From Ipomoea triloba (taxonomy: Eukaryota > Streptophyta > Magnoliopsida > Solanales > Convolvulaceae): 64,000 bases of DNA. The stretch lies in NCBI RefSeq assembly GCF_003576645.1, contig NC_044929.1, forward strand, positions 7,173,845-7,237,844, given 5' to 3'. The notes under the pieces are model-generated. The model was not told the DNA's origin and made no database searches. It worked only from the letters and a program-made list of their open reading frames with translations. Within the stretch, counting starts at the first letter, position 1. Every line of letters begins with the position of its first letter. The position numbers and the translations under genes are program-made. Positions 3,001 to 61,790 of the stretch are shown piece after piece.

Positions 3001-4702
3001 TGAGATTGAGCGATTGTTACAAAAGTACAACAAGTCCTTGAAAGATTACCCTCATATGCCAATTCCAATTCTTGAAGAATCTTGGAACCACAACAATCGT
3101 TTGTTGTGTGATGAGCTTGGATATGATCGGGATGCTCTACTTATAGAGAGCGGCAGGTTAGAAAGTCAATTAACTGATGAGCAATCTTTGGTGTACAACA
3201 CGATCCTAAATGATGTACAAGAACAGAAGGGCGGCTTTTTCTTTGTTTATGGATATGGCGGCACCGGAAAGACATTTGTTTGGAAAGCACTCTCTGCAAA
3301 AATAAGGTCACAAGGAAAAGTGGTCCTTAATGTTGCATCTAGCGGTATTGCTTCTTTGCTCTTGCCAGGCGGTCGGACAGCTCACTCGCGGTTTGCTATA
3401 CCTATTGCCATTACAGAAGACTCGACATGCAACATATCTCAAGGTAGCCATCTTGCCCAACTATTGATAACTGCAAAGCTTATAATATGGGACGAAGCAC
3501 CAATGATGCACAAACATTACTTCGAATGTCTAGATAGAACTTTGAGAGATCTTATGCGGGTCTTCGAATGTCTAGATAGAACTTTGAGAGATCTTATGCG
3601 GGTCCAAGATTGCAATAGTGGTAGTAAGACATTTGTTATGCGGGTCCAAGATTGCAATAGTGGTAGTAAGACATTTGGTGGTAAAACGATGGTATTAGGA
3701 GGTGATTTTAGACAAATACTACCGGTTGTGCCGAAAGGATCAAGGCAAGATATTGTTTCTGCAACAATAAACTCTTCTTACTTGTGGGGATCATGTCAAG
3801 TCTTGAGGTTAACAAAGAATCTTCGCCTAAATACAGATGAACAAGGTGCTAATATTGAGGATATTAAAGATTTTGCCCAGTGGTTGGCCCAAATCGGCGA
3901 TGGTATCTTGGGAGGCCCTAATGACGGCTATGCCAAAGTTAAAATTCCTCAAGAAATGTTGTTGCCATCGACAGGGGACAACATAGCAACTATTGTGGAT
4001 AATATTTTTCCAAGGTTCAAAGAAGGGTGTTGTCACCAAGAGTACATGGAGAGTCGTGCGATATTAGCCCCCACGCTAGATGTTGTGAATGCAGTGAATG
4101 AATATATGACAGATCTCCATGTTGCTGAAAGCCGGACATACCTAAGTTGCGAGACGGTGTGTAAGGCGGATTCAAATAATGGCATCCTATCGGATATGCA
4201 CACTCCAGAATTCCTTAATGGATTAAAAGCATCTGGCATTCCTAATCATGCTTTAACTCTTAAAGTGGGATCTCCAGTCATGTTGTTGAGAAATATAGAT
4301 CACGCAATGGGACTTTGCAGTGGCACAAGGCTTATTATCACTAGATTATCAGAGCATGTTATCGAGGCAAAAATTGTCGTTGGTCATAACGCTGGACAAA
4401 TCGTCTTGATACCAAGGAAGTCAATGACGCCAACAAATACAAGGCTTCCATTCAATTTTCAAAGAAGACAATTTCCGTTAGTGTTGGCATATGCGATGAC
4501 CATTAACAAAAGCTAGGGTCAAACATTAAAGCATGTTGGGTTACTCTTAAAGAAACCTGTTTTTGTTCATGGCCAATTATATGTTGCTGCTTCACGTGTT
4601 AGTAACCCTAAAGGGTTTAGAATCTTAATATCAAATGATGATGCAGAGAGTAACAATTATACTACAAATGTTGTGTACCATGAGGTTTTCAATAATTTGT
4701 AA
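2..4702 (+). pseudogene. Helitron Rep/Pif1-like helicase, decayed
   Basis: The visible exons are (off left edge)-479, 588-1513, 1632-2849 and 2958-4515; their phases join correctly through GT-AG introns. Exon 1 holds the zinc-finger-like N-terminus, with an in-frame TAG near 98. The HUH nickase motif LPHAHIL spans the start of exon 3, and the tyrosine motif YLFKYVNKG lies near 2080. Exon 4 is the Pif1-like helicase: Walker A GGTGKT near 3259, Walker B IIWDEAP near 3483, and GGDFRQILPVVP near 3700. A TAG at 4514-4516 replaces the glutamine in the conserved NKSQGQT motif; reading through it continues about 62 codons to a natural end at 4702. Between Walker B and GGDFRQ there are 42-bp duplications (3520-3677). 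The two stops make this a pseudogene unless they are read through. Confidence 0.9.
3520..3677. repeat. 42-bp staircase tandem duplication in helicase exon
   Basis: A 42-nt block at 3520-3561 is repeated at 3562-3603. The next 42 nt (3604-3645) are 32 nt of downstream sequence followed by the last 10 nt of the first block, and then the downstream sequence starts again at 3646. Both steps are backward jumps of exactly 42 nt. The frame is kept (14 codons each), but the insertions fall between helicase motifs, where the family has no such repeat. Confidence 0.95.
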
Positions 4703-4956
4703 ACATGTAGTATAAATTTCTTTTTGCAGTACTGTAGTAAGTACATTGTATGAATGTTGTGTTCCATTAATGTTGTGTACCAAGAAGGTTGCAAATTTTT
4801 AATTGTTGTGTAATACTTAATAATATTTAATCATACGTACCATGAACTTTTTAATAATTGTTGAATGTTGATAATCATAATTTCCGTTCAATATACGTTT
4901 GGCATGCATGTAGTCCAAAGCAAATTAGTCATGCAACATAGTACACTTAAACACAG

Positions 4957-4983
4957 CCGTGCAACGCACGGGTACAATACTAG
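4957..4983 (+). other. Helitron 3' terminal hairpin and CTAG end
   Basis: A 6-bp stem CCGTGC/GCACGG with an AAC loop is followed 8 nt later by CTAG|T. The same stem and loop recur on the minus strand at 58448-58462, so both belong to one Helitron family. Confidence 0.92.
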
Positions 4984-5625
4984 TTTTATCTAGAAATAGC
5001 TTTGTTTTTCTAGATAAGAAAATTCGTTATCACAATCCAAAGAGTGTGCATTGACTAAACATCATTATTGTATAATAATAACTACAAATTACACATAAAA
5101 AATAATTGTACTAAGAAAAGTTATGTAACGGTTGACAAATTTGATGAAGAAAGTGTCGACTTTCAAAACCCTTGTCCAAGAGTTGGAAGAGATAAATCGC
5201 GAACCAGATACCATGTTCCTACCTCTTACATGTCTATGCACAAGAAATATTTATTACTTTTGATCGGTTAAAATCTTCTAAAAATGATTGATGGAATCAA
5301 CATTTCATGAGTTGAAGAAAAAGAAAAGAAAAGAAAAGAAAAAAAAAAGTAAATAAGGTCGTAGTTCTTCCCTCCATATCTATATCTGAAACCAAATTCC
5401 CTCGTTTTCATCTCCGTTCTCTCTCTTCCCGCTTTTCTATACATCAAACCCCAGATCTCATCAATTCTCATTCGTTTTCTTCCCAAGTTTCAATTCCCCT
5501 TTTTCCTTCCCGGGACCATTTCCGACTGCTTCAAGTTGAGTTCCCAGGATTCTGTAAGATCAAATTTCAAGTACCGACAAGGATTCCCTTACTTCTAAGG
5601 CAAAGGAATTTTTCCATATCAGATC
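4984..5625 (+). promoter_or_regulatory. Presumed E2F promoter and 5' leader
   Basis: This stretch lies between the Helitron end and the E2F start codon. The part from about 5360 to 5520 is pyrimidine-rich (runs of CTCTCT and TTCC), as in many plant leaders. TTCCCGC at 5426-5432 resembles the core of an E2F binding site, which could allow self-regulation. A purine-rich AAGAA/AAAAG tract lies at 5318-5350. I see no clear TATA box. The start of transcription cannot be placed from sequence alone. Confidence 0.45.
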
Positions 5626-8600
5626 ATGCAGCAAGACTTGAAGCGGCAGCAGCTGCCTTTCACGGTGGTGAAGCCTCCATCTGGGGACTTCCGCCGCTTC
5701 TCTGCCGACCACCCGCGTCACTCTCCTCCTCAACAGCCTGATGACATCATCGTCAACACTCCTGTGAGTCTTGGAATTATGTACGCTTGTTGACAAGTTC
5801 TTTTGTTGTTGTTGTTTTTACTGTATTTATTGTTATTTGCCTATACTTGGACTTTAGTGACTGTGTAAGTTAAAGTCTTTTTATTTTGTTTCCTTAAACA
5901 AAAAATCTGCTGTGAAAACTTTGAAAGTATAATTGAAATTGGATTTTTCTTTAGTGCATTCTTACTTTTTGATTGATAATAAGTAAAAATGTATGATCTT
6001 CTAGATTTTAATGTTATGGTTGGCAATGCGAGCTAGCTAGGTTAAGCTGGATTTTTTTTGGGTGACGAGGAAACCACAGCCACTACTAAGTGGTAAATCT
6101 TGCCTTGTGACCCTAGTCGGCCGGCAAATAACCACAATCAAGGTAAATCAGCTTAGGTTGCCCATAGCTGACCGACATAAATCAAGAGAGTTGGGATTCG
6201 AACTCGTGACCTTGTGGTTAAGCTGAATTCTTAATTTGGAAACTGCAGTCATTTACTCATTGATTATGTTCAATCTTAGGCCATAGCTATCCTCATTCTT
6301 GATTCTGGTTTGGATTATTAGCTTGTATTAACCATAATAAAGTTTGGATCTTTCTTGGATGTATACTTTCCTTGAATGTGAGTGATTTATGCTAGTCACC
6401 TTACTTTTGGAGACTTGTATCATCAGGACTGTGCCCATTGTTCCAATTGACTTAATTCACATATTTCTCTTGCCTCAACAAGCATTGTTAGTCATAACTT
6501 GAATCGTTTTATGTATATGTTACTGTGAAAACAGATGATTATAATACTCTGTATTGTTGTACATTCTTGTCGCTGTGAATCTTATTTCACAATGCACTGT
6601 TTACAACCTTTTAATGCTTGTTTGATTTAACCAGCCATTGAAGTGGAAGAGTGACATGGTGAGCCACAGTCAGGTACCTAGTGATCAGGATCCAAGTTTT
6701 GGATATGCTGTCAACAGTCCAATGCAAACGCCAGTTTCAGGAAAAGCTAGAAAGGCACAGAGAGTACCTAGGACGTCAAAATCCCGCAGATATGTATCCC
6801 AGAATGCAGTAGATGATGGTGAGAATTTCCAATAGAAATGTCTGTTATGGGAAGTGCATTAAGTTACAAAGTATTATTAATGGAAAAGAAATTGAACAAG
6901 AGCAGTTTTCTTTAAGGAAGAGGCAATAACTTTTGATTGCGGAATTACAGGATCACCTTCCGGCAACAATGTCACTCCAGTCGGTTCCTGTCGTTATGAT
7001 AGCTCCCTAGGTAATATGTACTTTCCAACATGAGTTATTTATTTATTTATTTTTTAAAGTGCTTCTGCCCCTCTTCTTCTCCTTCATCTCAATTTACAGT
7101 AGCTAAGACATTGACAACATTGTTTTTACTTTCATCCAGGCCTTTTAACAAAGAAGTTCATTAATCTGATCAGACATGCAGAAGATGGTATTCTTGATCT
7201 AAATAAAGCTGCTGATACATTAGAGGTGATAACTTCCTAGTTGATTATTTAATATGCGTAGCTGATGAAGTTTTAAAAACTGAAAAAATGAAAATTTCTT
7301 CTTCAACCAGGTTCAAAAGAGACGTATCTATGACATAACGAATGTCCTAGAAGGCATTGGTCTAATAGAAAAGAAACTCAAGAACAGAATTCAATGGAAG
7401 TAAGAACTATCTCATATCTACATAAATGGGTCTCAGTTTTCTCTTTATTTAATGTGTACTTGCCTCAACATTTTTTTCATCACAAGGAAAGTGACTAATA
7501 AAGAGCGACATGGTTATGCAGGGGTCTAGATGTGTCGAGAACAAGCGATTTTGATGGAGTTTCAAATTTACAGGTAAAAGGACATTTCTATCATTATGCG
7601 TGTGCTCTTTCTTATTGCATTGATTACATACTTTTTGTTTTCTAAATCTCATAGCTAATCTTTTCTTCATTTCTTTCTTGAGGAAGCTATGCTTAGACAA
7701 CACTTCTTGACCTCCCAAATGCACTAATTAGGTGGCATGAGTGATAGAGAAAACTTTTACTCATTAGGAATCAGCACTGAATTTCCTCTACAATGCATAA
7801 GTCAAGTAAATGTAATATAGTTCTGTTAAGAGTGGCCTACAAGATCTGCTTAGGTTATATCCACTGGCCACAGCATTGTGGGTCCCTTTCAATTGTTAGA
7901 TGAGCTGTTCATAGACTTATTCTCATGTACTCTGCACTCTTTTGCAGGCCGAAGTGGAGAAATTGATGTTAAAAGAGCGTAGAATAGATGAACAAATCAG
8001 GTTTAGTATAATAACTTTAAGAAACACATTCATTCAACCATGGTTATTCTGATTTTATGTTTCATACAATTGTTTTAGAGAAATGCAAGACAGGCTGAGG
8101 GACCTGAGTGAAGATGAAAACAATAAAGGGTATTGTGTTCTTGGATGTTCTTCAAGCCTGTAATTTGAATTTTAAGTGGATTTTTTATTTGATCTAGCTG
8201 CTAATGTTTTTATACGTGGGCTTTCAATATGATCATACCAGATGGCTTTTTGTAACTGAAGAAGATATTAAGGGCTTACCTTGTTTTCAGGTACAAAGAA
8301 CTTTATTAAAAAATTAGTCTGCTTTCATTTTCTTCTGTGTTCTTTTAGTCATGTTGCTTTTATCACTTGGACTATATGTTGAATTATAAATATTGCATTT
8401 TTCAGAACGAAACACTTTTAGCAATTAAAGCTCCCCATGGCACAACTTTAGAAGTCCCAGATCCTGATGAGGTTGTTGCCTATACTTCTCAACAATTGAA
8501 GTTTTTGCTTCTCATCTTTTCACTTCTAAACTTTTCTTATCTAATTTAATATTCTCTTTAATAACTTTCAAACAGGCTGTTGATTATCTGCAAAGAAGGT

Positions 8601-9834
8601 ACCGAATAATTCTAAGGAGCACCATGGGACCAATAGATGTCTACCTCGTCAGGTACTTGTTTTTCTTGACACAAATAAAACACATCATCTAAACCCCCCA
8701 CACTGACTAAGAGTGTTATTGATTGCCCTTAAAGATGCTTCTTCTTTTATCGTTTTTTGAGTGACGAAAGAAACTCGCAGCCACTACTCGAGGGTGTGCA
8801 TTGGGTAAATCTCGCCTTGTGACCCTAGTCGGCAAAGGACCACAAGGAAGTAAACCAGTCTAAGTTGCCTATAGCTGAGCGGCTCAAACCAAGGAGGCCA
8901 ATAGGCCGCTCCCGTTGGGAGTTGAACTTGTAACCTTGTAATAACCACATCAACAACCTGACTAACTTGGTTGGGGTTGTCCCAAGATGCTTCTTCTTGA
9001 TAAGTGAAGTGGTATACTATCTCATTGTCGTTTGCTTATGATTAAATTGTTTGAACTTCAACCATCAAGTCAATTTGAGAAAAAACTCGAGGAGATAAAT
9101 GCTGTGGATGTGGCACCTAGCATTCATTCAACATCAGGAGCGAATGAGAATGCAACTGCGATGGTAGAAACTGAGGAGAGTAGAGGAAATGAAGTATTGC
9201 AGGAAAAAGAAACAGAAAGAGCGTCCTCCAATGTTGGCACATCACAGGATTTCACGAGTGGAATCATGAAAATCGTTCCCGATGTTGATGTAAGTCCATT
9301 CTTACAAGTCTACAAAATTAGTAGCTTTTGTTTGGCGTCATTGAAATGCCCCAATTGCATTAGGATCTTATGGACTGTTATAAGATCTAAGTTAACAGAA
9401 TAACAGATCATTATTTTTGAATGATCACGTCATTATGATGATTTCCACTTTCTAAATCTATATTCTTTCCAGAATGAAGCAGATTACTGGCTCTTGTCAG
9501 ATGCGGATGTCAGCATCACTGATATGTGGACGACAGAGCGTATCCTAATTCCTAATGCTTTTCAGAACTTCTAAAGTTTTTCAATTTCTCTTTTCCTCCT
9601 AACCCCACTCCCCAACACAGACACCCCCAATTTTCCTTTCAATTTCACAATATTATTATTAGAATAAACAGATTCCCTGACTCTCACATAGCTAAAGTTA
9701 ATTGGAGTGCCTTGAATTTAGTTCATGAAGATTACACTACGGCAAACATCAGTACTCCTCGTGCCCAAACTCCACCCGTTGCAGCTGAAACGCCATCTGC
9801 TGCCAACACTGCTGTGAGCTTGCCCGCGGTCTGA
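5626..9834 (+). CDS. E2F: E2F transcription factor, activator (E2FA/E2FB) class
   Basis: Fourteen exons join in frame into 444 aa: 5626-5763, 6635-6818, 6951-7010, 7140-7225, 7311-7399, 7522-7573, 7948-8000, 8079-8129, 8242-8290, 8406-8471, 8576-8652, 9070-9289, 9473-9539, 9692-9834. Residues ~121-187 are the winged-helix DNA-binding domain ([23 protein letters not shown]). Residues ~200-245 form the leucine-zipper/coiled-coil dimerisation region for a DP partner. Residues ~250-305 are the marked box ([14 protein letters not shown]). Residues 380-394 ([15 protein letters not shown]) are the retinoblastoma-related (RBR) binding/activation motif. In plants this class switches on S-phase genes with DP in the nucleus and is held by RBR. 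The DP-independent DEL/E2Fd-f class is excluded because it has two DNA-binding domains and no RBR motif. The start ATG is the first in frame. AATAAA at 9985-9990 could be the polyA signal. SINEs sit in introns 1 and 11. Confidence 0.95.
6050..6215 (-). mobile_element. tRNA-derived SINE (family A), 5'-truncated
   Basis: It lies in E2F intron 1 and is flanked by the 10-bp direct repeat GGTTAAGCTG at 6040-6049 and 6216-6225. On the minus strand it begins with a pol III B-box-like GAGTTCGAATCCC, and its body matches the SINEs at 8747-8983 and about 27279-27540 (shared ACCCTAGTCGGC). The tRNA A-box part is missing. Confidence 0.85.
8747..8983 (-). mobile_element. tRNA-derived SINE (family A), full length
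   Basis: This 237-bp insertion in E2F intron 11 has a perfect 15-bp target duplication, AAGATGCTTCTTCTT, at 8732-8746 and 8984-8998. Read on the minus strand it has an A-box-like AAGTTAGTCAGGTTG, a B-box-like AAGTTCAACTCCC and an A-rich 3' tail (T-run near 8752-8758 on +). It is the best reference copy of the family in this window. Confidence 0.9.
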
Positions 9835-10340
9835 AGTGCTGATCAGGCTTCTTCGTTTAGAACACAACTTCACCAGGTACACCCTTTACGAATAACCCAG
9901 AATGAAGAGGAAAGGAATAGCATGCAAGAGTTTTTTTATGTTTCTTTTACAGTATATTCATTAGCCTGTTTTGCTACATGTAGCAATAAAAGTAATAGTT
10001 TAAGCCCTTTTTCCAAATTTAGCTTTGTATTATTCCTATTTGCTTCTGCTTCAAACTTGATGAGTTAATGTTGTCTTTGGATTGCACAACTAGAACATAA
10101 TGTATAGGATAGAGCTTCATAGAGAGCATACTGCACACTATGTTGTTGCTAAACTTAATTTTGTGGAAATTTTTTCAAATTTGTATAGTTTCATTAACAA
10201 AATTTGAATAATTCATCACATCATTTATAAAGAAGATCAATTTCTTTTCACTTAAATCACAACATATCATCAGCATACTGAATACTATTGCATACACAAA
10301 AAAGTGTCCATTGCTCATAAGTCACAACACTTGAAGAATG
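9835..10340. other. E2F 3' flank, no gene seen
   Basis: It contains the presumed E2F 3' UTR with AATAAA at 9985-9990, then AT-rich sequence without a coding signal or a recognised repeat. Confidence 0.5.
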
Positions 10341-10349
10341 TGTTCTAGA

Positions 10350-10580
10350 TCTAATAGGGGTGTCCGAGTGTGTGGAGTATGATTCTTGTACCAGGCCACA
10401 AGTTTGATTCTTGCTAATAATATTCTTGGTTAACTTATCGAGTTATTGTACATGATCTTTCTAGTGCGGTTTGCCCCTCTTATGTGATTTTCGAGGTTTA
10501 CCTCTTTTATATGATTTGTGGGTTATTACACAGAATCTTCATAGTGCGATTTACATCTCTTATGTGGTTTTTGGGTTATT
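10350..10580 (+). mobile_element. Possible SINE with tRNA-Ser/Leu-like head
   Basis: GTGTCCGAGTG near 10361 resembles the A box of a tRNA-Ser/Leu, and AAGTTTGATTCTTGC near 10401 is a degenerate B box. Downstream, about 60-bp degenerate units ending in GGGTTATTAC recur two to three times. No target duplication was found. Confidence 0.4.
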
Positions 10581-10582
10581 AC

Positions 10583-11605
10583 AAATGGGTGGAATTTACT
10601 TTGTTTGGTTCATGGGATTAGACATAATGAATGAGAATGAAAATCGTTGACATTGTTTGGTTGATAACTTTTTAAAACGCAACTATATAAGATTTAGTTA
10701 CTCTTCTACCTACAAAATCCATTACCTAATTTAAATTAGGTATCATTCTTAAATTGCAGTCCATCCCTCAACCTCCTCATCTCTTTTGCCTTCTCTAATA
10801 ATTTTTCATGCTTAAAGAAATGTGAAATATATTGAAAGAAATAAACTTAATGAATGAAGAAGAAAAATTATAACAGTAGAGCTTACTTTGACCACAAAAT
10901 AAAATAATATAAATTTCTTTCTTTATATATAGTTAGCATTAACATGAATAATCCGATTATTATTACCAAATTGTTCTCTTCATTACAAGGAAAAGTAATA
11001 GACACTACTTTTTAGGTTGAAAAGATAAATCAAAATTGTCCAAGGACATTTTCTCAAAAACTCAAATAAATTACATAATACGTACACATTTTTTAAATGT
11101 AAAAATACGGATTATATTTATACTAATTTAAACATACATTTTCAATGGGGAATAGATTCTTTTCTAAAACACTTTCAACTTCTTTTTTCTCAGTTATCAT
11201 TTTGAATGTATAAATATATCAAATTTATCTCATCATTTAAGAAAGTTCACTCAAAATAATATTTGTAAAATCTTTATTTCAATTATATAGAGTAGAGTCA
11301 TTCTACATCGGTAATCATTCTTTTATGAGTACTATTGACTCTGATTTTGTTACAATGTAGTATCTGTTCATAACTACTTTCTCAACCAAATGAAGCACAA
11401 ATAGCCAATATCGCCTCGACTGATGCTCGAACCCACACTCCCATGTGGGGTGCAATCGGGTGCCACTAGACCACAAGGTCTTTGGCACATCGGTAATCAT
11501 TCTATTCCAACATATTACCAAACATGCAAAATATTTTTATCAAAACCATTCCAATTACCAAGTATTTGATTCTCATTCTCATTTCGATTCTCATGTTCGA
11601 ACCAA
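10583..11605. mobile_element. Candidate MITE-like element containing a nested SINE
   Basis: The left end (TTTGGTTCATGGGATTAG... GAATGAGAATG near 10607-10640) and the right end (CATTCTCATTTC... GAACCAAATACACCC near 11573-11612) are imperfect inverted repeats of the GTTTGGTTC type seen in Tourist/Harbinger MITEs. The inside is AT-rich with no ORF. Exact ends and target duplication are not clear. Confidence 0.35.
11322..11486 (-). mobile_element. tRNA-derived SINE (family B)
   Basis: A perfect 17-bp target duplication (ACATCGGTAATCATTCT) flanks it at 11305-11321 and 11487-11503. On the minus strand it opens with the A-box-like TTGTGGTCTAGTGGC, then the B box GGGTTCGAGCATC, and ends in a 3' unit reading TTGAGAAAGTA...ACTACATTGTAAC. 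The same 3' unit recurs at about 12098, 24285 and 52735. Confidence 0.92.
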
Positions 11606-11757
11606 ATACACCCTTTGTACACACTTTCGAGTAGTCGTTGTAGGTTTCCTTCGTCATTCACCGTAGGTTTTCCTCATCATCTAAAAAAAAAGAATAATGT
11701 GTTCTATCTCAACTAAAAGGTTGAGCTAATAGTCGAATTGCACGTTTATTATTTATA

Positions 11758-17470: not shown

Positions 17471-18399
17471 CATTTAAAAAAAAAAGCTTTGAACATTTAA
17501 GCATTACCAATCTGTAGGTGCCAGGCTTCACCACCCTTCCCACAGGCCACATCAATGAAATAAAAAAGACACTGCAATGTAAATAATAATAATCAAGTCA
17601 CATCATAATCCAGCAAACTGAATAGATTTATTTTCAGAGCATACACACCTACAGTCTATCAAATTTAAGAAATTGCCGACCTCCCCGGATGCCATCAGAC
17701 ATCCTTATAACAAGGTTAACAGCATTCTCATCGTCAAGGGTCGGCTCCTGAGGCAAGGAACCTTCTTTGGCTGCTAATTGTCTCTCAGGTTCCTGATCAA
17801 TTATTAGACAACACTCTCATGAATGATTAAGGCCAAGTATAAGGGGAACTATCTAAATAGTGAATCTGATGCAAAGTCACCACTATACACAGATTGATGA
17901 TGTGCATTTCATAAGTTAACAAATTGATGATGTGNAAAAAAAAGCTTTGAACATTTAAGCATTACCAATCTGTAGGTGCCAGGCTTCACCACCCTTCCCA
18001 CAGGCCACATCAATGAAATAAAAAAGACACTGCAATGTAAATAATAATAATCAAGTCACATCATAATCCAGCAAACTGAATAGATTTATTTTCAGAGCAT
18101 ACACACCTACAGTCTATCAAATTTAAGAAATTGCCGACCTCCCCGGATGCCATCAGACATCCTTATAACAAGGTTAACAGCATTCTCATCGTCAAGGGTC
18201 GGCTCCTGAGGCAAGGAACCTTCTTTGGCTGCTAATTGTCTCTCAGGTTCCTGATCAATTATTAGACAACACTCTCATGAATGATTAAGGCCAAGTATAA
18301 GGGGAACTATCTAAATAGTGAATCTGATGCAAAGTCACCACTATACACAGATTGATGATGTGCATTTCATAAGTTAACAAATTGATGATGTGCATTTCA
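17471..18399. repeat. ~460-bp direct duplication around a single N
   Basis: About 17474-17934 is repeated essentially identically at 17936-18396, with the only N of the window (17935) exactly between the copies. Overlapping contig ends joined through a gap would produce this. Confidence 0.93.
17510..17800 (-). pseudogene. Captured UBX-domain (PUX-like) gene fragment
   Basis: Minus-strand exon 1 (about 17797-17650) encodes a PUX-like stretch: LPQEPTLDDENAVNLVIRMS, then DGIRGGRQFLKFDRL. Exon 2 (about 17572-17513) continues CLFYFIDV and then, after what looks like a 7-bp insertion (GCCTGTG), reads VVKPGTYRL in another frame. Plant UBX proteins are cofactors of the AAA ATPase CDC48. A TAG sits where the last exon-1 codon would be CAG, so the fragment is broken twice. 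The same block is repeated at about 17975-18262 across the N. Confidence 0.65.
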
Positions 18400-18678
18400 T
18401 TTCATTATTCAATAAGAATTCACAGTCAGGGATAAAATTCTTTATAGAGAATGCTTAGTAAGTAATCTAACTTTTGGATTGGAAACTCAGTATCCAAGTA
18501 TAAAAAAACCTCTGTAGAACTTTGAAATAATACAATAAATAGCATGTTTCAACTTTCTGCAAGAAAATAATTAGGTGAAGAAAGATTCATCAGGAATGGG
18601 TTTGCAAGAAAAATATTGATAATATGCATACAAATAGAACATGGGACATTGGGACCCGATGTTATCTCCTGTCAAGTA

Positions 18679-18961
18679 ACAGAACAGATGAGATACTATC
18701 AAACTAAAACAATCATTTAAAGAAAGGAGGCAAGAAAAGGGAATGAACAGAGGACAACTAGGTCATACATCAACAAATTTTCACTACCATATTTGAGCAT
18801 AAACCTCAAGTCCCTATGAAACAGAACAGATGAGATACTATCAAACTAAAACAATCATTTAAAGAAAGGAGGCAAGAAAAGGAATGAACAGAGGACAACT
18901 AGGTCATACATCAACAAATTTTCACTACCATATTTGAGCATAAACCTCAAGTCCCTATGAA
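18679..18961. repeat. 142-bp tandem duplication in CACTA
   Basis: 18679-18820 and 18821-18961 are nearly identical (one G fewer in the second copy). No coding content is seen. Confidence 0.9.
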
Positions 18962-19872
18962 ATACTGAAAAGTGAAAATCAGACATGAAAAATTCACTAC
19001 AGCCTCACCTCAAAACCACCTGCAAAAACCCAAATCTACTACATCCCACAGCCAAAACTGCTAGAGAGAAAGTTATTCTATTCTAACTAATGAGAGCAAA
19101 AATCACCAAATGATACCAAAAATAGAGTTTATACATGAATGCTTGGGTGGAGATTAATTGATTAGGGTTTGTATTTACCTAGACATGAATCTTCTCTTGT
19201 AAGCTTGGATTCTTTGGAAGACTTCCATTGGGATTTTGCAGAGATTAAGCCTACGTATTATGATGAAATAGTGAGATTAGAAGCAGAGAAAAATCTATTG
19301 TAGTGTAGTGTAGTGAGATGAGGGGAAAACCGGAGATGCAAAGTGCAATGCTACTGTGGAAACTACGGTCTTCTCGCAGTGGAATCAGCGGTGGTGTCAT
19401 GGAGCAGTCGCAGTGGAAACGACGGTGTGTCTTGGAGCGGTGCTAAATGGCTATGGAAACCTTTCTCTCTCTCTCTTCTCAAAGGCTATGAAAACTTTCT
19501 TTACCCAAATGATAGTGCAGTGAGATCATTAGACTTTTTTTTTTTCTGAAGATATTGTTTCTTAATGCGGCTACGGCGCCAAATGATAAAACTTTCCCAC
19601 TAAATAATTTCACTTTTCCTGACGTTTTATGCTAAAATTGATTTTTAAAACAAAACATTTAAGGACGTTTATTATACAACGTCATTGATTCTAAATCTTT
19701 ACTGACAAAAAAGTTATATTTCGTCGGCAAATATTATAAAAATTTGTATTGTCTCTACCAAAATATATAGTGACGTTATTTAATATAACGTCGCAAATTG
19801 TTATATTTAACGACGTTTTTTAGAGCGTCGTTAAAATTTTCATCGGGAAATGAAATATTTCTTGTAGTGAGC

Positions 19873-41230: not shown

Positions 41231-42795
41231 TAATGAATCTAATATGTCTGAAGTTAACGCTAATACTTGGTGGATTGATTCTGGTTCAACAATCCACATT
41301 GCAAACTCTTTACAGGGAATGCAAAATCCGAGGAAGCCAGTGGGAAATGAGCGGACCATCTTATCAAGAAACAAGATGGGGTCGCAAGTGGAAGCAATTG
41401 GAAAATGCAAGATGGTTCTAAGTAGTGGTTTTGTTTTGGTTTTGAATAAGACATTTTTTGTACCAAGTTTCTCCCGAAACTTGATTTCAATATCACGACT
41501 TGTGCCGTTGGGTTTCTCCTTTAATTTTCAAGACAAGCGTTTTGATATTTTTAATAAATAACCTGCTGTTGGATACGGTACAATGTCTGATGGTCTTTAT
41601 CGTTTGCATTTACAAGACAGTACCACTTACAGTTCATTGCATGTTCATTCCGGTTCCAAAAGATCAAGTAATAGTGAGAACTCCTCCATGTTATGGCATC
41701 GGAGATTAGGCCATATCTTCCTTGAACGTATAAAGAGATTGGTAAATGATGGGGTACTTAGTACTCTTGATTATACTGATTTCGAGACTTGTATAGACTG
41801 CATTAAGCGAAAGCAAACGAACAAGTCTAAATTGGAAACCATACACACTGACATTTGTTGTCTAGATATGGATATGCCTGGTTAGAAGTATTTCATCACC
41901 TTCATTGTTGATTACTCGCGATTTACTTATGTGCATTTGATTCATAATAAAAATGAAGCATTGGATGTCTTCAAGTCTTTTAAGGCTAAAGTTGAGAACC
42001 AATGTGGGAAACAAATACAGATAGTAAGATCTGACAGAGGTAGTGAATACTATGGTAGGTACACTAAAAGCGGACAAGCACCTGGTCCATTTGCTAAGTT
42101 TCTTCAAGAACATGGACAAGCACCTGGTCCATTTGCTAAGTTTCTTCAAGAACATGGGATTGCACCTGGTCCATTTGCTAAGTTTCTTCAAGAACATGGG
42201 ATTGTTGCCCAATATACCGCTAAGTTTCTTCAAGAACATGGGATTGTTGCCCAATATACCATGCCTGGTTCTCCGGACCAAAATGGTGTTGCTGAAAGAA
42301 GAAACCGAACGCTTAATTGACATGGTGCGGAGTATGCTTATCAACTCCAAACTTCCTAAGTTTTTGTGGGCCGAAGCGCTTAAGATGGCAACATATATAT
42401 TAAACCGTGTTCCAACCAAGGCTGTCCCAAAGACACCATTTGAGTTCTTTAAATGTTGGAAACCGAGTTTGCAACATATGCGTGTTTGGGGATGCCCGTC
42501 TAAGGTAAGGATATATAACCCACACGAAAAGAAGTTGGACCCAAGGACTATTAGTGGTTTCTTTATCGGATACGCACAGTACTCCAAAGGGTATAGATTT
42601 TATTGTCCATCTCATTCGACTAGGATCGTGGAATCAAGAAATGCTAAGTTTCTTGAAAATGACATGATTAGTGGGAGGGATAGATTCAATTATTTGATTT
42701 CTAATCATGACCATATTGAATCATGTCCTTCTACATCATCACATAGGTTGATAATGGATTCAAGCACCATTCAAGATCAAACGGGTATTGAATAA
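41231..42795 (+). pseudogene. Copia protease and integrase, broken
   Basis: Protease WWIDSGSTIHIAN near 41270. GAG-pre-integrase LWHRRLGHI near 41695. Integrase core fragments: IHTDICCLDMDMPG with a following stop at 41883, FIVDYSRFTYVH, VRSDRGSEYYG near 42030, and QNGVAERRNRTL near 42280. A staircase of 42-bp units (42072-42239) is inserted between the second Asp and the catalytic Glu, and the frame shifts near 42310. Confidence 0.88.
42072..42239. repeat. 42-bp staircase repeat in copia integrase
   Basis: Four 42-nt units (42072, 42114, 42156, 42198). Each later unit carries more downstream sequence at its front (0, 7 and 21 nt), exactly as if the copy had jumped back 42 nt three times. 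The frame is kept. The reading outside the array joins smoothly if the extra units are dropped. Confidence 0.95.
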
Positions 42796-49940: not shown

Positions 49941-50089
49941 CCTTGCAACTATGCGCGGGAGCCCGGCCCCGTTGTGCCAGGCCAATAAAAACTGGCAACG
50001 ATGTTAGCCTCCGGGCTTTATCTATATTTCCATTATAGTTTTTCGCTCGCCTTCAATTTTTACTCATCGTACACCATTAGGTACCCACC

Positions 50090-50590
50090 AAATTAAGGTA
50101 CGAGTACTGTTTAGACCGAGCACCTTGCTCCCGGGGTGGGCACCTTGCTCCCACCGAATTAAGGTCTGATGACCGTTTAGACCGGGCACCTTGCTCTCAG
50201 GGTGGGCACCTTGCTCCCACCAAACTAAGGTCCGGGAACCGATTTCACTGGGCACCTTGCTCCCATCAAACTAAGGTCCGAGGACCGATTTGACCGAGCA
50301 CCTTGCTCTCGGGGTGGACACCTTGCTCCCACCGAATTAAGGTTTGAGGACCGTTTAGACCGGGCACCTTACTCTTGGGGTGGACACCTTGCTCCCACCA
50401 AACTAAGGTCTGAGGACCGATTTGACCTGACACCTTGCTCTCGGGGTGGGCACCTTGCTCCCACTGAATTAATGTCCGAGGACCGTTTAGACCAGACACC
50501 TTGCTCCCAACAAACTAAGGTCCGAGGACCGTTTAGACCAGGCACCTTGCTCCCACCGAATTAAGGTCCGAGGACCGTCTAGACCAGAAT
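50090..50590. repeat. Tandem repeat block of the gypsy 3' region
   Basis: About 8 units of roughly 60-66 bp, built on CACCTTGCTCCCACCGAATT, then AAGGTCCGAGGACCGTTTAG. Units vary by loss of the CTCGGGGTGGG half. Confidence 0.92.
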
Positions 50591-52730: not shown

Positions 52731-52734
52731 CTCT

Positions 52735-53197: not shown

Positions 53198-53206
53198 GTA
53201 TATTAT

Positions 53207-53616: not shown

Positions 53617-56600
53617 TCAGAAAAAGGTACCTTCTGGGGGCTGAACAAGCTTTCGGTTATGTGGCGCAGCCATCTCTTTTCTCAACTGACTCAAGATGTC
53701 TTCCATCGTGCACTCTCGCTGCCAATTCGCCAGCATACCAAACTTCTTGGCTTCAACCTGTCATAAACGGGCAACTGTTAGTTCTTGCATGCATCATTAT
53801 GTTCCCCCAACTTATGGTAAGAGCATCCTCAATAGTCATAAATTTTTCTTGGTTTTTGTCGGTCCATGTAGGGGAGAGGGGAAGAGAGAAGAGGGAAATT
53901 AAAATAAAATAAAATAATTGTGCATGGCGGGTGCAATGCTGGCGCGACCCAGTCTTTCTCCCATTTCCCCAACCAATGGGTTCCACAAAGATTTTTAATT
54001 TGCAAGAGAAAAGTTTCCGAAAAAAAAAAAAAAAAACCTCACATCCCCATTTGTTCAAAAAACCCCTCCCAAGTTTTTTCTCCTGAAAAAACTCTCCCAA
54101 AATGCACAAATGGGGATGCCTTAAAAGTGCTAAAATGTTTCATAAGAAACAACTTGAAAACGTAAGACCACAAAGGAAGGACCACATTTCTTAATCTTTT
54201 TGCATATAGCATCCAGTTTCCCCATCCCAAGTTGTGCCCACATGGTCCCGAGCTCTTTAACACTACGCACACATACAAGAGTCAATTTTCGACCTTGCAA
54301 ATGCATTAGCAGCTCGTTTACCAACTACCCGTTGTTGGGTTAGATTTCTTTATCTTTGATAATTAATGCTTATACAAATTCCATTCAAATCCTCGAATGC
54401 TATTAAAATCAGTAGTTTAATCTTTTCCTCTGAATGTACTTAATAATCAAAACAAATTCTCCATACTAGAAATCTTGAATTCTACACTTCAAAATATATT
54501 AATAAAATAAGAAAATGAAGGAAAAGAAATCAAAACATGAATAAGATTATAACCAAGTTAACAGTATGAAATGCCTTATTACCACTCCAGTCTCAGGGTT
54601 CACACAGGTCAAGTTAATGCGTGAGTGAAAACGGACAGATGGTGGCTTTTCTGGATAGTCTTTGTCACAAAACAGCTTCAGTTGATAAATACGTCCCTCA
54701 TGTACAGTCTGGGAGGAAAGAGTTAATAAATTTCTATCAGCACAAATGTATAATACCCCAGAAACCAAGACCTAGACTGCTACATTGTTTCATAAATCCT
54801 CACTCTCTGCTAATAACGAGAATAAAATCATCATTACGGAAAATTTTGTTATCATCATAAAAGATGAAAAGTAGTAAATATCTAAGGACAACTTGGTATA
54901 ACTGAAAATAAACTATCAATGGGAACAGTTAAATAGCTTTACATCCATCCTCGATCTCAAGCCATGTGCACAAACCTCCAACAACATTCCTATTTCCTTA
55001 ATCCTTTGCGGTACTCACTCCCACGAGGCCACAACTCACACATTGACAATGCACATACCAAACAAAAATTGATGAAAAGAAATAGAAAAGGACAGTACAA
55101 ATTGTCCCGAAATTTTGGCTGGAGAGCCTAAAAAATTTATAACCCAACGTACTGACAGACGTGGAAAAAAAAAACAAGCAAATAAACAAAAAATACCACT
55201 TTAGAAACATAGGAGTTTAAACAAACAACTTACATTGTGCGGACCAATTATGGTACCCGTCCAAGAACGCATGTAAATATCATCAGCATCATCCATTCCA
55301 TAACTAACAGAACCATCTCCAATACCTTTCTCCCCACGTTCAAGCTCCTCAAGCAACCTAAAATTCCGAGGGACTGCAAATAGGGAACAGCCCACAATGT
55401 AAATGATGCAAAGCTTTTAGAGGATGCCAAAAAGTCAGGCATCAGGAAAGAAACTTTCCCAGAATACTAGCAAATCAGAAATTAGCACCAAATTAAGTGA
55501 GTCCCAGAAATCATGTGTAAGCTACTGATAAAAAACTACTACTGGAATTGGAAAGTAACATGGACACCAAGTAATGTTATCAAAGTCTTTAACTTTAATA
55601 TATGCAAAAGGAGTAGAACTACAAGCAGTGCAAATCTACAATATGGGAAAAATGCAATTGGGCTGATTGCATACTTAACAAGTAAATTGCATTTTAACAT
55701 TGAACTGAAGGAAAAAAAAAATCTATTTAAAAAGTTTCCTTATACATATTGATGGTGAAACCTCAAGCTTATCTTTTCAACTAGCATGATATAAGAATCG
55801 CAGCTTTGTATCAGCACTTTCAAATGCTAAACATTTTTCAAGGTTCCCAATGATCATGATATAAGCCAATACATCAAGCGTTTCTAAATGCTAGGGGAGC
55901 CTATTTAGTAACTGAAAAGTTCTCCAATTTTAAAGAAAAATGTAAGAGAAAAATAGTTTTAAATCAACTATTTTTAAAATTAGAAAATAAAAAATAAAAT
56001 AAAATAAAAAATAAAAAAGAAAGCACTATCTCCAACTTAACACAGAAATTTAGAAATTTCCAAACACACAAAAACATATATACCTTCACCTACCACCTAA
56101 CCCTGTAAGGTACCTACCCACCCACCACAAAATTTCTATTTACCCTTACCACTACCCACCTATGGCCTCACTAAGGCCTCCATTGCTATCATACTTCCAC
56201 CACCAGTAATTATCTACCCTCACATCCATCTAGCTATCCCTACCACAACCAACCTACCCCATGACTACAATTACTCAATACAATTGTCACCTACCAGTGA
56301 AGACAACAATTGGATTTCAAACCTTCATATTTTATAAATTGGAAAATAGTTAAATTTGAACATATTTTCTAAGTGTTCAATAGAAAATGAAGCTTAGATT
56401 TGTGGAAAAACTGGAAATAAAAAACGGAAAACATTTTCCATAACTAAATAGGCCAAAAACTTGTCCAATAAATTTTTCTCATCACCAGAAACGCTTATAC
56501 TATTACAAGAATTGAAATCAAATTACCAAATCCACCTGCTCTATAATAAATGTACCTAGTTAGCTCAATATTATATTTTCTATAAACATTACCATTTAAT

Positions 56601-58224
56601 CTCCTCCATATGTTTTTTAATTTTCACTTTTTACAGATTCAGCCAGGTTGTCTCTGCCTCTCTCCGATTAGGATTATTATACCGATTTACTAATGATATT
56701 GACCAATATTTGTTTTCTATCCCTTTAGTTTTTCATATTGATTAATCTCATTAGAAGTCTCAGAAGCTATTTCTGGAGGTTGTGCAAAAAACGATCTTTT
56801 ATAAGTCAAACCCATACATTTTTCTTCACGAATAACTATCCATACACATCATAATCAGTTAAGATAATTAGGTCAAGTATCCTAAATTGCAGAAAGGCTA
56901 GCATTCTCTCTTTCCAAAATGACTTTTCAATTAGTTTTAGAATTTATAAAATAAAAAAGTCTACACACAAATAAAAGAAAAAAAAATTATATCTACTATA
57001 GATTTTGTTGCTTTTAGACATTATTAGATCATTTCTTGATTTCTATATCTCTCTACTTTTTCACCCATGTACTTCTAGCCTGGCATTTACCCATTAGTAA
57101 AACAATTTAAAAAAAAATAAATAAAGGATGGCATCATTCAGCAGTCCTGGCATAGCAGAACGCTTAGTTGAAAAGCACATTTTTCTTATGGAATTAGGTT
57201 CAATTCATTAAACCAAAAATTGGGGAACATAGTTAGAAAACTTCATTTTGAGGATTTAGTTGTTGGAGTCATTATATTCCCACCATTTCTAAAGTTTATT
57301 GTTTTTGTTCTCATTCCTTTCTGCTCAGGTGACATAACAATAGAACTCCATCCACCCAAGCTGGATTAGTTATCATTAGCTATTATTAGTAGTTACGAGA
57401 CGAAAGGAACCGTGAACGCAATTTGATCTAGCTCTCTTAATCTCTCTAGTGCCAGTCCTGGTTCCTCAGCTTTCTGAAATCCTTCTGTTTTGCTGCACTT
57501 CAGTTCTTCATCCCCTTACTAAAATCTTTGATTCCTTTAAGTTGAATCCTTTACAGAGTACCTCGACAAGGTAATATATTCACATCAAAACATTCATTCA
57601 AGCCTGATTTCTGGCTCATCTTGCAAAAGTACACATACAATTCAAAATAACCAAGATACCAACAAAAAGTACATATAAGCCACTCCAAATAAGTGTCTTT
57701 TTTTTTTTATTAACATGAAAAATGGGGAGCCAACAAACTAATCCCCACGAAGCACATCTTCACTCCAAATAGTAGTAATGCAATGGCTAGCCATATCTCA
57801 AAGAATCAAGATCAAAGACCTCCGTACTAGCTCAATTTTTCCCCAAGACAAAATATACCTTAAAAGCTCCAAACATCCGTATATCTAGGATTAAACCAAA
57901 CAGAAAATTCATTCAAAAAGGGAAAAAAGAATAGACCTATAACAAAAACCATCATAGGAAAAACCCTAAGGCTTTAGCGACGGTAGAGCTGAGAGCAAAG
58001 CATCAAATAATGGAAATGGCACATACCCAAAACTGGATTTCATGAACCCATTGATAATTCACAGAAAGAATTCATAGCCATATCATGTAATTCACAAGAT
58101 TAAGACTGACTCGTGCAACCACCAAACATTTAGTTATACTTAAAAATAAGCTCAAAGGAAAAACGAACGAAAACTGAGATGAGTATTTACCAACAACCCT
58201 AGATCCTCCTGCACCGAGTGTCAT
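53617..58224 (-). CDS. UEV1: Ubiquitin-conjugating enzyme variant UEV1 (MMS2-like)
   Basis: Four exons on the minus strand: 58224-58191, 55373-55234, 54708-54583 and 53757-53617, giving 146 aa, the normal UEV1 length. Exons join in frame at GT-AG sites. Motifs in order: [79 protein letters not shown] and the C-terminal [12 protein letters not shown]. It has the E2 fold but no active-site cysteine at the expected place. UEV1 pairs with UBC13 to build K63-linked ubiquitin chains in DNA-damage tolerance and signalling. Exon 1 is tiny (34 nt), and intron 1 is 2.8 kb with a MITE. Two residues (VEAKKF for the usual VDPKKF) are slightly unusual. Confidence 0.96.
53818..54126. mobile_element. MITE in UEV1 intron 3
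   Basis: Inverted ends TAAGAGCATCCTCAATAG and, on the other strand, TAAGGCATCCCCATTTG. No ORF. Common plant MITE wording (GAGCATCC/GGGGATGC). Confidence 0.65.
55897..56454. mobile_element. Candidate MITE in UEV1 intron 1
   Basis: Inverted ends GAGCCTATTTAGTAACTGAAAA and GGCCTATTTAGTTATGGAAAA. The core at 56090-56290 is rich in CCACC/CTACC. No clear target duplication. Confidence 0.55.
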
Positions 58225-58434
58225 TATCTGGAATATAGAGATTACAGATATAAAGATCAAATCTTTGAAGAGTTTCCTGGAGATAACGCAATACAAAATT
58301 GACTTCTGAGGAAGAATGATATAAAGAGGGAGATGTATTTCCAATAAATTTAATACGGAGTATGATGTATTTACTGTCTCCGTAAAAAAACATATTCACC
58401 TTATTGAAATGTTAATAAAAAATTATTCAGTATA

Positions 58435-58462
58435 CTAGTATTTTCGCCCGTGCGTTGCACGG
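58435..58462 (-). other. Helitron 3' terminus upstream of UEV1
   Basis: On the minus strand the hairpin CCGTGCAACGCACGG (+ 58448-58462) is identical to 4957-4971 and is followed by CTAG (+ 58435-58438). The Helitron body would extend to the right. The terminus lies 211 bp from the UEV1 ATG. Confidence 0.88.
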
Positions 58463-60417
58463 AATAGATTTACTATAATATGTTAAGAATATTTAGATTG
58501 ATATACAATTATGTACATTATAACGTGGAATATTATATAGTACAATTGAATAATTGAGTTTGATCGATTATGTTTTCTGATGTTATCATTAGTTGAATTT
58601 GAGCAAATAATTTTCCAATTAATAGCCAACGTGTATATATATGCATTCAGTGCTGAAACTTTAGACATTTTATATATCAATGTTTATGATTTGTATTAAT
58701 TAGGCTAATTATTTCGTTGTCTAGCAACCCAGTTATAGAAATTATTTGTACGAATGATATATTTTATATGTAGATATATAGCAATTTTGTCGCATCTTTG
58801 TATAAAAAGAAGACATAACATAACTGTTTTGAATTACACGTTATTGAAAACCTTTTTGTAGACGATCGACATTGGTAGTATATTGTATATTGTTATTGTA
58901 AATTTTTATACTTATTTTACATCACTAATGACGTAAATTATCTAAAATTATAGCTTTTTAGTGCTCTATTTCAGAATGACTGTAGTAAATTATCCAGGAC
59001 TTTAGTACTTCATTGATTATAAGATATTTCTAAAGCATGTATGTATAGATTAGCTATGCTTTCTTTTAAGTGTATAGATTAACCTTATTTCATGAATGTT
59101 ATGTTTGATTTATGAGCATGTTTTATTTGTGGTGTATTTTTGTCTAATAGTTGGGCTGTATAATGTATTAAGAGTTATAACTCCACCTAAACATGTCAAA
59201 CTTAATTTGGCTCTTTAGGGTATACTTTATATTTATCCATAAGGTTTTATTTGTGTAATTAATTTGATTTTTTTAAAATGTAGGTGTTATAGTTAGAGTT
59301 CTTAGATTAAGATAACGATGTTTAGAAATTTATTAGTAATTCCAATAAAAATGAGGTCATTTTATTATAATTACTATATAGTAATTAAGGAGTTACATTA
59401 CTCTTAATTAATATTCTGCTAATTATGATGTCCGTTTAATTATGAACGTAATATGTGTATGTTTAATTTCCTTTAATTATGTCTGTAATATTTGTATGTT
59501 TAATTTCCGTTAATTATGTCCGTTATATGTGTACGATAAATTTCCTTAATTGATTATATAAAATTCATATTACGTCAAATATAAAAAATAGATTAATAAA
59601 AGTATAATGTGTGAATTAATTTCTTACTTATCATAATTATTAAGATTTTATTCAAAAATAATCATTGGCATAATTTTATATGTGTAATAATTTACATAAT
59701 TATATGGCGTAATTCACAAGCATAATAATATGTGAGTTGGAATAATTATCATAATTTTTTTAATCTAGTTTAATTATGGACGCAATATGTGTATTACCAA
59801 TTTCCTTAATTTATTAGATAAAATTTATATTACGGAAAGTATTAATTTTCTAATTGTCATAATTTTAAGATTTTATTTAAAAGTAGTCAAAAGAAGTGCA
59901 CGGATAATTGATATTATTTAAAGTAAAAAATAAATAAAATCTAAGAAAGTATTCTCTATGTTTAATTACCATAATAAATTTAGATGTTAAATACAATAAG
60001 TAATTACCAAGGGTTATTTAAATGGTAAATACTATATGCTTATTACCTATATAGATTACCATAATAAACGGATTGACATATGGATTAATATTATAGAAAA
60101 GGGATGAAGCTTTTTAGGAAAGATATATTAGGAAAAATATCAATTAATTAAAATATGATAGAAAATTATATTAGGAAATTGATTAGCTAGTATCAATTAT
60201 GCTAAAATTATATTAGGAAATTGATTAGCTAGTATCAATTATGCTAATTTTTTCTTAGGAAATTGATTAGCTAGTATCAATTATGCTAATTTTTTCTAAG
60301 GAAATTGATTAGCTAGTATCAATTATGCTAATTTTTTCTAATTTTATATTTGTAATTAATGTTATAAACGAATTTAATAGGAAAATTTAATTAGGAACTT
60401 TTATTAAATAGTTTTGG

Positions 60418-60454
<37 letters not shown>

Positions 60455-60674
60455 AATATTATGAAAATTATTTTAGGAAATTATATTTAGAATTTTGGAT
60501 TATTATTATTATTATTACGGCGTATTATATTATTATTATTATTATTATTATTAACGCGTTGATGAGTGCATCCCTGTTGAAATCTTCCTAGCCTTACGTG
60601 ACGACTGCATAGGTATTCTTTGCCCACAAAGAACTATTGAGAGACATGCTAAGTTGTTTGGATTGACCCCTCAA
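58463..60674. other. AT-rich Helitron-like filler, no gene seen
   Basis: Repeats of TTTAATTATG(T/G)CCG-type units lie near 59430-59530 and 59765. (ATT)n runs lie at about 60420-60450 and 60500-60553. No ORF with coding character, and no matching minus-strand 5' end was recognised. Confidence 0.5.
60163..60341. repeat. 42-bp staircase tandem repeat
   Basis: Four copies of a block containing AGGAAATTGATTAGCTAGTA spaced exactly 42 nt apart. The joints differ (ATATT|AGG, TTTTCTT|AGG, TTTTCTA|AGG), each fitting a backward jump of exactly 42 nt at a different point. Confidence 0.93.
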
Positions 60675-61790
60675 TCTATACTATTAATAAAAACAATATT
60701 CTCAGTTTTAACTTCCCGCCCAAAACAGAGCTATAATATTTTGGTGTGCGTAATATTGTATAATATGGTAATACAATTCCTATCCCTAATACAATTGTAA
60801 ATTAAAATAAAATTCCTAATAAAATATATTCTTCCCTACGTTCCTATTCGTAATACAATTTTAAACTAGAATTACTAATGGTAATAATTCAGTATATATA
60901 TTTCTCTGCAATGCAATCTATACTATTAATAAAAACAATATCCCCAGTTTTAACTTCCCGCCCAAAACAGACCTATAATATTTTGGCAGTTTTAACTTCC
61001 CGCCCAAAACAGACCTATAATATTTTGGTGTTCGTAATTTCCCGCCCAAAACAGACCTATAATATTTTGGTGTTCGTAATATCCCGCCCAAAACAGACCT
61101 ATAATATTTTGGTGTTCGTAATATTCCGCCCAAAACAGACCTATAATATTTTGGTGTTCGTAATATTGTACCCAAAACAGACCTATAATATTTTGGTGTT
61201 CGTAATATTGTAAAATATGGTAATACAATTCCTATCCCTAATACAATTGTAAATTCAAATAGAATTCATAATAAAAAATATTCTTCCCTACGTTCCTATT
61301 CCTAATACAATTCTAGACTAGAATTACTAATGGTAATAATTCAGTATATATATTTCTCTGCAATGCAATCTATACTATTAATAAAAACAATATCCTCAGT
61401 TTTAACTTCCCGCCCAAAACAGACCTATAATATTATGGTTTGCGTAATATTGTAAAATATGGTAATACAATTCCTATCCCTAATACAATTGTAAATTCAA
61501 ATAGAATTCATAATAAAATATATTCTTCCCTACGTTGCTATTCGTAATACAATTCTAGACTAGAATTACTAATGGTAATAATTCAGTATATATATTTCTC
61601 TGTAATGCAATCTATACTATTAATAAAAACAATATCCTCAGTTTTAACTTCCCTCCCAAAACATACCTATAATATTATGGTTTGCGTAATATTGTAAAAT
61701 ATGGTAATACAATTCCTATCCCTAATACAATTGTAAATTCAAATAGAATTCCTAATATTATGGTTTGCGTAATCTTTATATATATAAAAA
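60675..61790 (+). repeat. Four tandem Helitron 5' ends
   Basis: The Helitron-type 5' end TCTATACTATTAATAAAAAC, each after an A, occurs at 60675, 60917, 61369 and 61611. The units are 242 bp long except the second, which is 452 bp (242 plus 5 x 42). All units share the following CCCGCCCAAAACAGA and TTCAGTATATATATTTCTCT segments. The last unit leads into the Helitron body with the RPA remnant. Confidence 0.88.
60945..61196. repeat. 42-bp staircase repeat inside a Helitron 5' end
   Basis: Six 42-nt units from CAGTTTTAACTTCCCGCCC onward. Measured from 60945, the jumps back occur after unit positions 42, 52, 53, 55 and 58, each by exactly 42 nt. Sister units at 60675, 61369 and 61611 lack the expansion. 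Confidence 0.95.

What the first reader, a model, noticed from the sequence alone, without database searches (positions are those of the whole stretch)
3520..61196. Backward jumps of exactly 42 nt at four unrelated loci
At 3520-3677 (Helitron helicase exon), 42072-42239 (copia integrase), 60163-60341 (AT-rich DNA) and 60945-61196 (Helitron 5' end), the sequence repeatedly returns exactly 42 nt and then reads on, each time a little further (2, 3, 3 and 5 jumps). The sequences share no homology and three are in different element types, so the constant is the step length, not the sequence. The leading explanation is a read-correction or gap-filling artefact with a fixed step. If real, it would be a repeat-making process with a fixed 42-nt period, close to four helical turns (that link is speculation).
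Basis: seen in the sequence. Interest (0 to 1): 0.78.

Follow-up and report, generated by a model that had tools for sequence, protein, structure and literature searches.

The report
Assembly stutter: untrimmed 42-base overlaps
The repeated 42-base "backward jumps" are almost certainly a computer error made when this plant genome was pieced together (overlapping fragments were glued end to end without removing the shared 42 bases), not a biological repeat-making process.

Summary
In detail: 13 of 14 exact two-copy tandem duplications in the window have period 42, in staircases of 2, 3, 3 and 5 jumps. The step recurs elsewhere: 17 of 28 exact duplications in 25 sampled stretches, and other copies of the 61-kb repeat at other phases. 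In 64 jumps the repeated stretch is 42 nt plus chance extension, never shorter, without diverged copies. Within staircases 1-39 new letters separate jumps, as when de Bruijn unitigs sharing 42 nt are laid end to end untrimmed; a simulation gives the same pattern. Repeated 42-mers are branching words more often than neighbours (15 of 28, about 6 expected). The helicase jumps break a conserved domain, and none of 12 close copies matches across the second. Sequence lengths identify the Ipomoea triloba short-read assembly of 2018, gap-filled twice. Verdict: artefact. The responsible program is unidentified; no raw reads were available.

The parts
3520..3604 (.). jump 1 of 2 at the Helitron helicase ORF: exact 42-nt duplication (run 43)
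3594..3677 (.). jump 2 of 2 at the Helitron helicase ORF (run 42); 32 new letters between jumps
42072..42157 (.). jump 1 of 3 in the copia-type element (run 44)
42120..42204 (.). jump 2 of 3 in the copia-type element (run 43)
42177..42260 (.). jump 3 of 3 in the copia-type element (run 42)
60162..60247 (.). jump 1 of 3 in AT-rich DNA (run 44)
60213..60297 (.). jump 2 of 3 in AT-rich DNA (run 43)
60257..60341 (.). jump 3 of 3 in AT-rich DNA (run 43)
60945..61028 (.). jump 1 of 5 in the 242-bp-spaced repeat (run 42)
60997..61080 (.). jump 2 of 5 (run 42)
61040..61124 (.). jump 3 of 5 (run 43)
61084..61167 (.). jump 4 of 5 (run 42)
61129..61212 (.). jump 5 of 5 (run 42)
2951..4516 (+). open frame with PIF1 helicase domain that carries the two jumps at 3.5 kb in frame (42 nt = 14 codons)
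   Evidence: ORF; Pfam PF05970 E 1.7e-91 in two stretches; alignment to Helraiser broken at the jumps
17478..18392 (.). second kind of unmerged overlap: 457 nt, one N (17935), the same 457 nt again

Best explanation
The staircases are an assembly artefact. In a tangled (repeat or variant-rich) part of a short-read de Bruijn graph whose neighbouring pieces share 42 nt (k = 43 in the usual counting), a gap was bridged by a path of very short unitigs. The program wrote each unitig out in full without trimming the 42 nt it shares with the one before. The output therefore reads on, returns exactly 42 nt, and reads on again by the few new letters of each unitig. Shown: constant repeated length of 42 plus chance; steps of at least 1 and at most 39 new letters inside a staircase; presence at unrelated loci on several chromosomes; excess of branching words at the jumps that could be tested; no slightly diverged duplications of this period; source assembly made from short reads with gap filling. 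Inferred: that the template in the plant is single-copy here, that the pieces are graph unitigs, and that a gap-filling or long-read-correction step wrote them.
For: (1) 13 of 14 exact duplications in the window (periods 9-2999) and 17 of 28 in 25 sampled 10-kb stretches (periods 12-299) have period 42; in the 25 stretches no other period occurs more than twice. (2) Of 64 jumps, 41 repeat exactly 42 nt and 23 repeat 43-46, close to chance extension, with none at 28-41. (3) New letters between successive jumps: 41 values from 1 to 39, median 6, then nothing until 144. A simulated repeat family in a k = 43 graph with untrimmed unitigs gives minimum 1, medians 4, 5, 11 and 9 at four divergences, 65-95% at 39 or less, and mostly the same run lengths. 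(4) 15 of 28 testable repeated words have a different neighbouring base in another copy, against 6.1-6.3 expected from nearby words, P = 0.0004 by resampling, words not fully independent. (5) Seven of the seven other fetched copies of the 61-kb repeat carry exact 42-nt jumps too, at other phases; see evidence against for how they were chosen. (6) For the second helicase jump, none of the 12 other copies at 90-100% identity matches across the duplication; the matches start at query base 43 or 45. (7) Helraiser aligns to residues 53-204 and 241-521, with 36 query residues facing 2; the two jumps account for 28. (8) No period-42 duplication with 1-6 mismatches, against 15 exact groups. (9) Other overlaps are left unmerged in the same assembly: 4 of 20 N gaps are flanked by identical ends of 457, 207, 68 and 59 nt. 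(10) The total length matches the I. triloba assembly to the base (with table), made with SOAPdenovo2, GapCloser, PBJelly and Pilon.
Against: No raw reads or second assembly were available. From recall, default settings of the named tools would not give 42 (Pilon K 47, GapCloser 25-31, odd K in SOAPdenovo2). In the branch test 13 of 28 words showed no branch in the 0.06% of the genome held, and 23 of the 28 come from the 61-kb cluster and the loci fetched for it, so the words are not independent and the P value is optimistic; the window's other three clusters were not testable that way. In held DNA, 5 of 11 jump clusters show 0-3% repeated 21-mers, so a repeat tangle is not directly seen there. 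The seven copies were the best matches to a query that itself contains jumps, which favours copies with jumps; most listed rows cover only about query 227-306, a single unit. The simulation also gave some runs of about 85 nt, where two jumps abut; the longest real run is 46. Copies of the copia and AT-rich loci could not be searched because the service was busy.
Confidence: 0.96

Rival explanations
1. A real biological process (for example polymerase slippage or break repair with a fixed step) makes tandem duplications of exactly 42 nt at many loci.
For: The duplications are exact and have one period at unrelated loci, as a process with a fixed ruler would leave.
Against: Repeated length is 42 plus chance only, with no slightly diverged duplications of this period. 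Close copies of the helicase exon do not match across the second jump. Testable jumps favour words that branch between copies, which a ruler process would not see. The genome is a gap-filled short-read assembly that elsewhere fails to merge overlaps.
Confidence: 0.015
2. A sub-case of the best explanation: the stutter arose before gap filling, in hybrid error correction of the PacBio reads (graph path written without trimming), and PBJelly then pasted those corrected reads into gaps.
For: The paper says that error-corrected PacBio reads (5x for I. triloba) were used by PBJelly. A de Bruijn-based corrector would give the same signature. N gaps of exactly 25 bases occur, which from recall is typical of PBJelly.
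Against: The corrector is not named in the passages I read. The signature is equally expected from a gap filler working on short-read unitigs.
Confidence: 0.35
3. Ordinary minisatellites or recent tandem duplications that happen to have a 42-nt unit.
For: The window is rich in short-period repeats.
Against: The four loci share no 11-mer, each jump repeats the unit once only, and the neighbouring periods examined (38-41 and 43-47) have no full two-copy run in the held DNA.
Confidence: 0.005

Closest known systems
Untrimmed overlap between neighbouring unitigs of a de Bruijn graph (k-1 overlap; recalled textbook property)
   Same: Constant overlap, pieces longer than the overlap by at least one letter, jumps at branching words, independent of sequence content
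   Different: The exact program that wrote the pieces out untrimmed is not known here; overlap 42 implies k = 43 (or nodes of 42)
False duplications from mis-assembly (Kelley and Salzberg 2010, PMC2864568; abstract start in a listing, and outline)
   Same: Apparent recent duplication created by assembly software
   Different: That abstract speaks of two copies of polymorphic regions of divergent chromosomes built by mistake; here the size is fixed at 42 nt and the duplications form staircases
Replication slippage / minisatellite growth (recalled)
   Same: Head-to-tail exact copies
   Different: Unit length would vary between loci and copies would show a range of ages; neither is seen

Membership tests
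Untrimmed de Bruijn unitig overlaps | Repeated stretch has one fixed length at all loci | tested here: met
   64 of 64 jumps 42-46 nt, distribution close to 42 plus chance extension; none 28-41
Untrimmed de Bruijn unitig overlaps | Every piece adds at least one new letter, and within a tangle few | tested here: met
   41 within-staircase steps of 1-39 letters; simulation similar, but with some longer steps and some runs of about 85 nt that the real data lack
Untrimmed de Bruijn unitig overlaps | Repeated words are branching words of the genome's k-mer graph | tested here: met
   Excess: 15 of 28 against 6.1-6.3 expected, P = 0.0004. Not met word by word: 13 of 28 show no branch in the 0.06% of the genome held. 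Left out: 13 of 41 exact-42 words without another copy, and 23 of 64 jumps with ambiguous register. 23 of the 28 belong to the 61-kb repeat set
Untrimmed de Bruijn unitig overlaps | Absent from raw reads and from an independent assembly | not testable with these tools
   No reads or second assembly held
Untrimmed de Bruijn unitig overlaps | Pipeline used a graph step with k = 43 (or 42-nt nodes) | tested here: inconclusive
Biological tandem duplication (slippage, minisatellite) | Unit length varies between loci | tested here: not met
   Periods other than 42 occur at most twice each in 25 sampled stretches; 42 occurs 17 times
Biological tandem duplication (slippage, minisatellite) | Copies diverge with age | tested here: not met
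   Window and 25 stretches, at least 80% identity: period 42 has 15 exact groups, 0 with 1-6 mismatches, 1 with 7; other periods 25-120 pooled have 8 exact, 12 with 1-2, 53 with 3 or more

The most novel reading that the evidence does not exclude
Ipomoea triloba has an active repeat-making process that copies exactly 42 nt backwards at branching repeat sequences across its genome, recently enough that no copy has diverged.
Probability: 0.01. Interest if true: 0.9.

Novelty: not a real feature. Interest (0 to 1): 0.12.

Why it matters
As biology it does not. As a warning it does: the step is a multiple of three, so false 14-residue repeats can sit in open frames without breaking them, as in the helicase frame here. 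The sampled density (17 jumps in 243.8 kb of non-N sequence, in 3 of 25 stretches) would extrapolate to roughly 30,000 jumps in this assembly. That figure is very rough because jumps are clustered. Studies of tandem repeats, gene models or transposon copies that rely on this assembly should filter exact period-42 duplications.

Tried and rejected
Species guesses that failed: globe artichoke (526 Mb anchored, 32% GC; PMC4726258, passages), Callicarpa americana (493.7 Mb in pseudochromosomes; PMC7476102, passages), I. trifida NCNSP0306 (462.0 Mb looked right, but its pseudomolecules are 373.4 Mb and no very large unplaced contig exists here), and I. trifida Y22 (460.9 Mb; PMC6444543, passages). 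I. triloba fits to the base. A first search by chromosome number found nothing. Paper searches that might have turned up a published description of this stutter showed none that I recognised among the rows listed; I saw listings only, passages of PMC7476103 (no 'tandem', no 'duplicat') and the outline of PMC2864568. A Platanus parameter search became irrelevant. A repeat-content comparison (36% of 21-mers near jumps seen in another 1-kb bin of held DNA, 5% far away) is partly circular, because staircases repeat their own words across bin borders, and it is carried by some clusters only: 5 of 11 clusters, three of them the window's first three, show 0-3%. It is not used as support. The Rfam scan of L024, L028 and the window found nothing.

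A count in my notebook (28 duplications in the first 20 stretches) was wrong: one search lists 27; with the five further stretches the total is 28. A notebook guess (I. trifida) was also wrong.

Full report
The observation. A mechanical scan of the window for exact two-copy tandem duplications of period 9 to 2999 found 14, of which 13 have period 42 and one period 28. The four loci share no 11-mer.

It is found elsewhere in the genome. The window lies in a 462-Mb genome of 17 sequences. Seven of the seven other fetched copies of the 61-kb repeat (L002-L008; L001 overlaps the window and was dropped) also contain exact 42-nt duplications, at different phases of the same repeat. These seven were the best of 236 matches to a query that itself contains jumps, so they are not an unbiased sample; most listed rows cover only about query 227-306, one unit. 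For an unbiased view I drew random 10-kb stretches (on some contigs only the first 12-15 Mb were eligible, because lengths were not yet known). In the first 20 of the shuffled list, 17 of 27 exact duplications (periods 12-299) have period 42, lying in 3 stretches. Five further stretches, picked by me from the second batch of that list, held one duplication, of period 28. In the 25, no other period occurs more than twice.

Shape of the jumps. In the window, L002-L008 and the first 20 stretches there are 64 jumps (13, 34 and 17). The repeated stretch is 42 nt in 41, 43 in 13, 44 in 6, 45 in 1 and 46 in 3. If the true length is always 42, chance matches at the ends predict 34, 18, 7, 3 and 1. A scan that allowed shorter runs found nothing between 28 and 41. 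Between successive jumps of one staircase 1 to 39 new letters are read (41 values, median 6, uncertain by the chance extension); the next larger distance is 144. There is no trace of older events: period 42 has 15 exact groups, none with 1-6 mismatches and one with 7, whereas other periods from 25 to 120 together have 8 exact, 12 with 1-2 and 53 with 3 or more.

What makes such a pattern. If pieces that overlap by exactly 42 nt are laid end to end without trimming, the result reads on, returns 42 nt, and reads on. Fixed overlap and variable piece length (43 to 81 nt here) is what unitigs of a de Bruijn graph would give, not reads, which would have fixed length and variable overlap (inference). 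In a simulated diverged repeat family with k = 43 and untrimmed unitigs, each of the four divergence levels gave period 42 as the only period among those printed, run lengths of mostly 42 plus chance, a minimum step of 1 and medians of 4, 5, 11 and 9. It also gave some runs of about 85 nt, where two jumps abut; the longest real run is 46. The model further predicts that the repeated 42-mers are branching words. Of the 41 jumps with unambiguous register, 28 repeated words occur elsewhere in the DNA then held (286 kb, 0.06% of the genome), and 15 of these have a different preceding or following base there. Nearby control words predict 6.1 (matched for copy number) or 6.3 (matched for locus), P = 0.0004 by 20,000 resamplings. 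Limits: 23 of the 28 come from the 61-kb cluster and the loci fetched for it, so they are not independent; 13 of 28 show no branch in what is held; and the window's other three clusters could not be tested. In a cruder test 5 of 11 clusters, the window's first three among them, showed almost no repeated 21-mers in held DNA.

Homologues. For the second helicase jump I searched the genome with window 3594-3800. Of the best 40 matches, 12 besides the window itself have 90-100% identity, and all 12 begin at query base 43 or 45, so none matches across the duplication. The first jump was not tested in this way. The 521-residue frame at 2951-4516 stays open because 42 is 14 codons; Pfam finds PIF1 helicase in two stretches, the better ending at residue 203. 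Helraiser (7lcc) aligns to residues 53-204 and 241-521, so that 36 residues of the query face 2 of Helraiser where the two jumps add 28. The extra copies thus sit in a conserved helicase domain. Copies of the copia and AT-rich loci could not be searched because the service stayed busy.

Source. C1-C16 plus C17 (161,750 bases, with frames that I take, by recall, for accD and ycf4, hence chloroplast) add up to 461,989,178, the stated genome size. Without C17 this is 461,827,428. The published I. triloba NCNSP0323 assembly has 457,835,428 bp in 4008 scaffolds (PMC6797701, passages). The difference is 3,992,000, that is 3992 spacers of 1000, which is exactly what joining 4008 scaffolds into 16 sequences needs; two 1000-N gaps lie in the one sampled stretch of C16. 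The paper (PMC6214957, passages) says that I. [quoted passage not shown] The window also shows another unmerged overlap: 457 nt, a single N at 17935, and the same 457 nt again. Four of 20 N gaps examined have such identical ends (457, 207, 68, 59 nt).

Verdict. The duplications are best explained as an artefact of a graph step with 42-nt overlaps, probably in gap filling or in hybrid correction of the long reads. The step itself is not identified. The defaults of the named tools that I recall do not give 42, and the supplement with the parameters could not be read. A biological process with a 42-nt ruler would need to leave only identical copies, prefer words that branch between repeat copies, be missing from near-identical copies elsewhere, and coincide with a gap-filled short-read assembly. 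I give it about 1%.

Noticed in passing
window 17478-18392: An identical 457-nt stretch on both sides of a single N (17935): contig ends that overlap but were joined with one N instead of being merged. A near-perfect 141-nt pair lies at 18678-18962 without an N.
   Followed up: partly
window 60.7-61.7 kb and one search matches: The 'Helitron 5' end' region belongs to arrays with units spaced about 242 bp, at many places in the genome (236 matches reported, not all listed).
   Followed up: partly
window 28.2-32.1 kb and 45.3-46.8 kb: Several diverged minisatellites of about 22 bp (CTTAAGGTGCGTG-like units and their complements), with TA and TG microsatellites beside them.
   Followed up: no
window 50084-50588: Array with nested 46-, 66- and 112-bp units (CACCTTGCTCCCACC...) that have diverged from each other, a contrast to the 42-nt staircases.
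   Followed up: no
L024 and L028: Two random stretches with high GC (about 0.49) carry 9 and 4 jumps; what repeats they are was not determined (no Rfam match).
   Followed up: partly
L027 6603 and L033 4640: N gaps of 861 and 516 flanked by identical ends of 59 and 68 nt, so the gap estimates may be wrong there.
   Followed up: no
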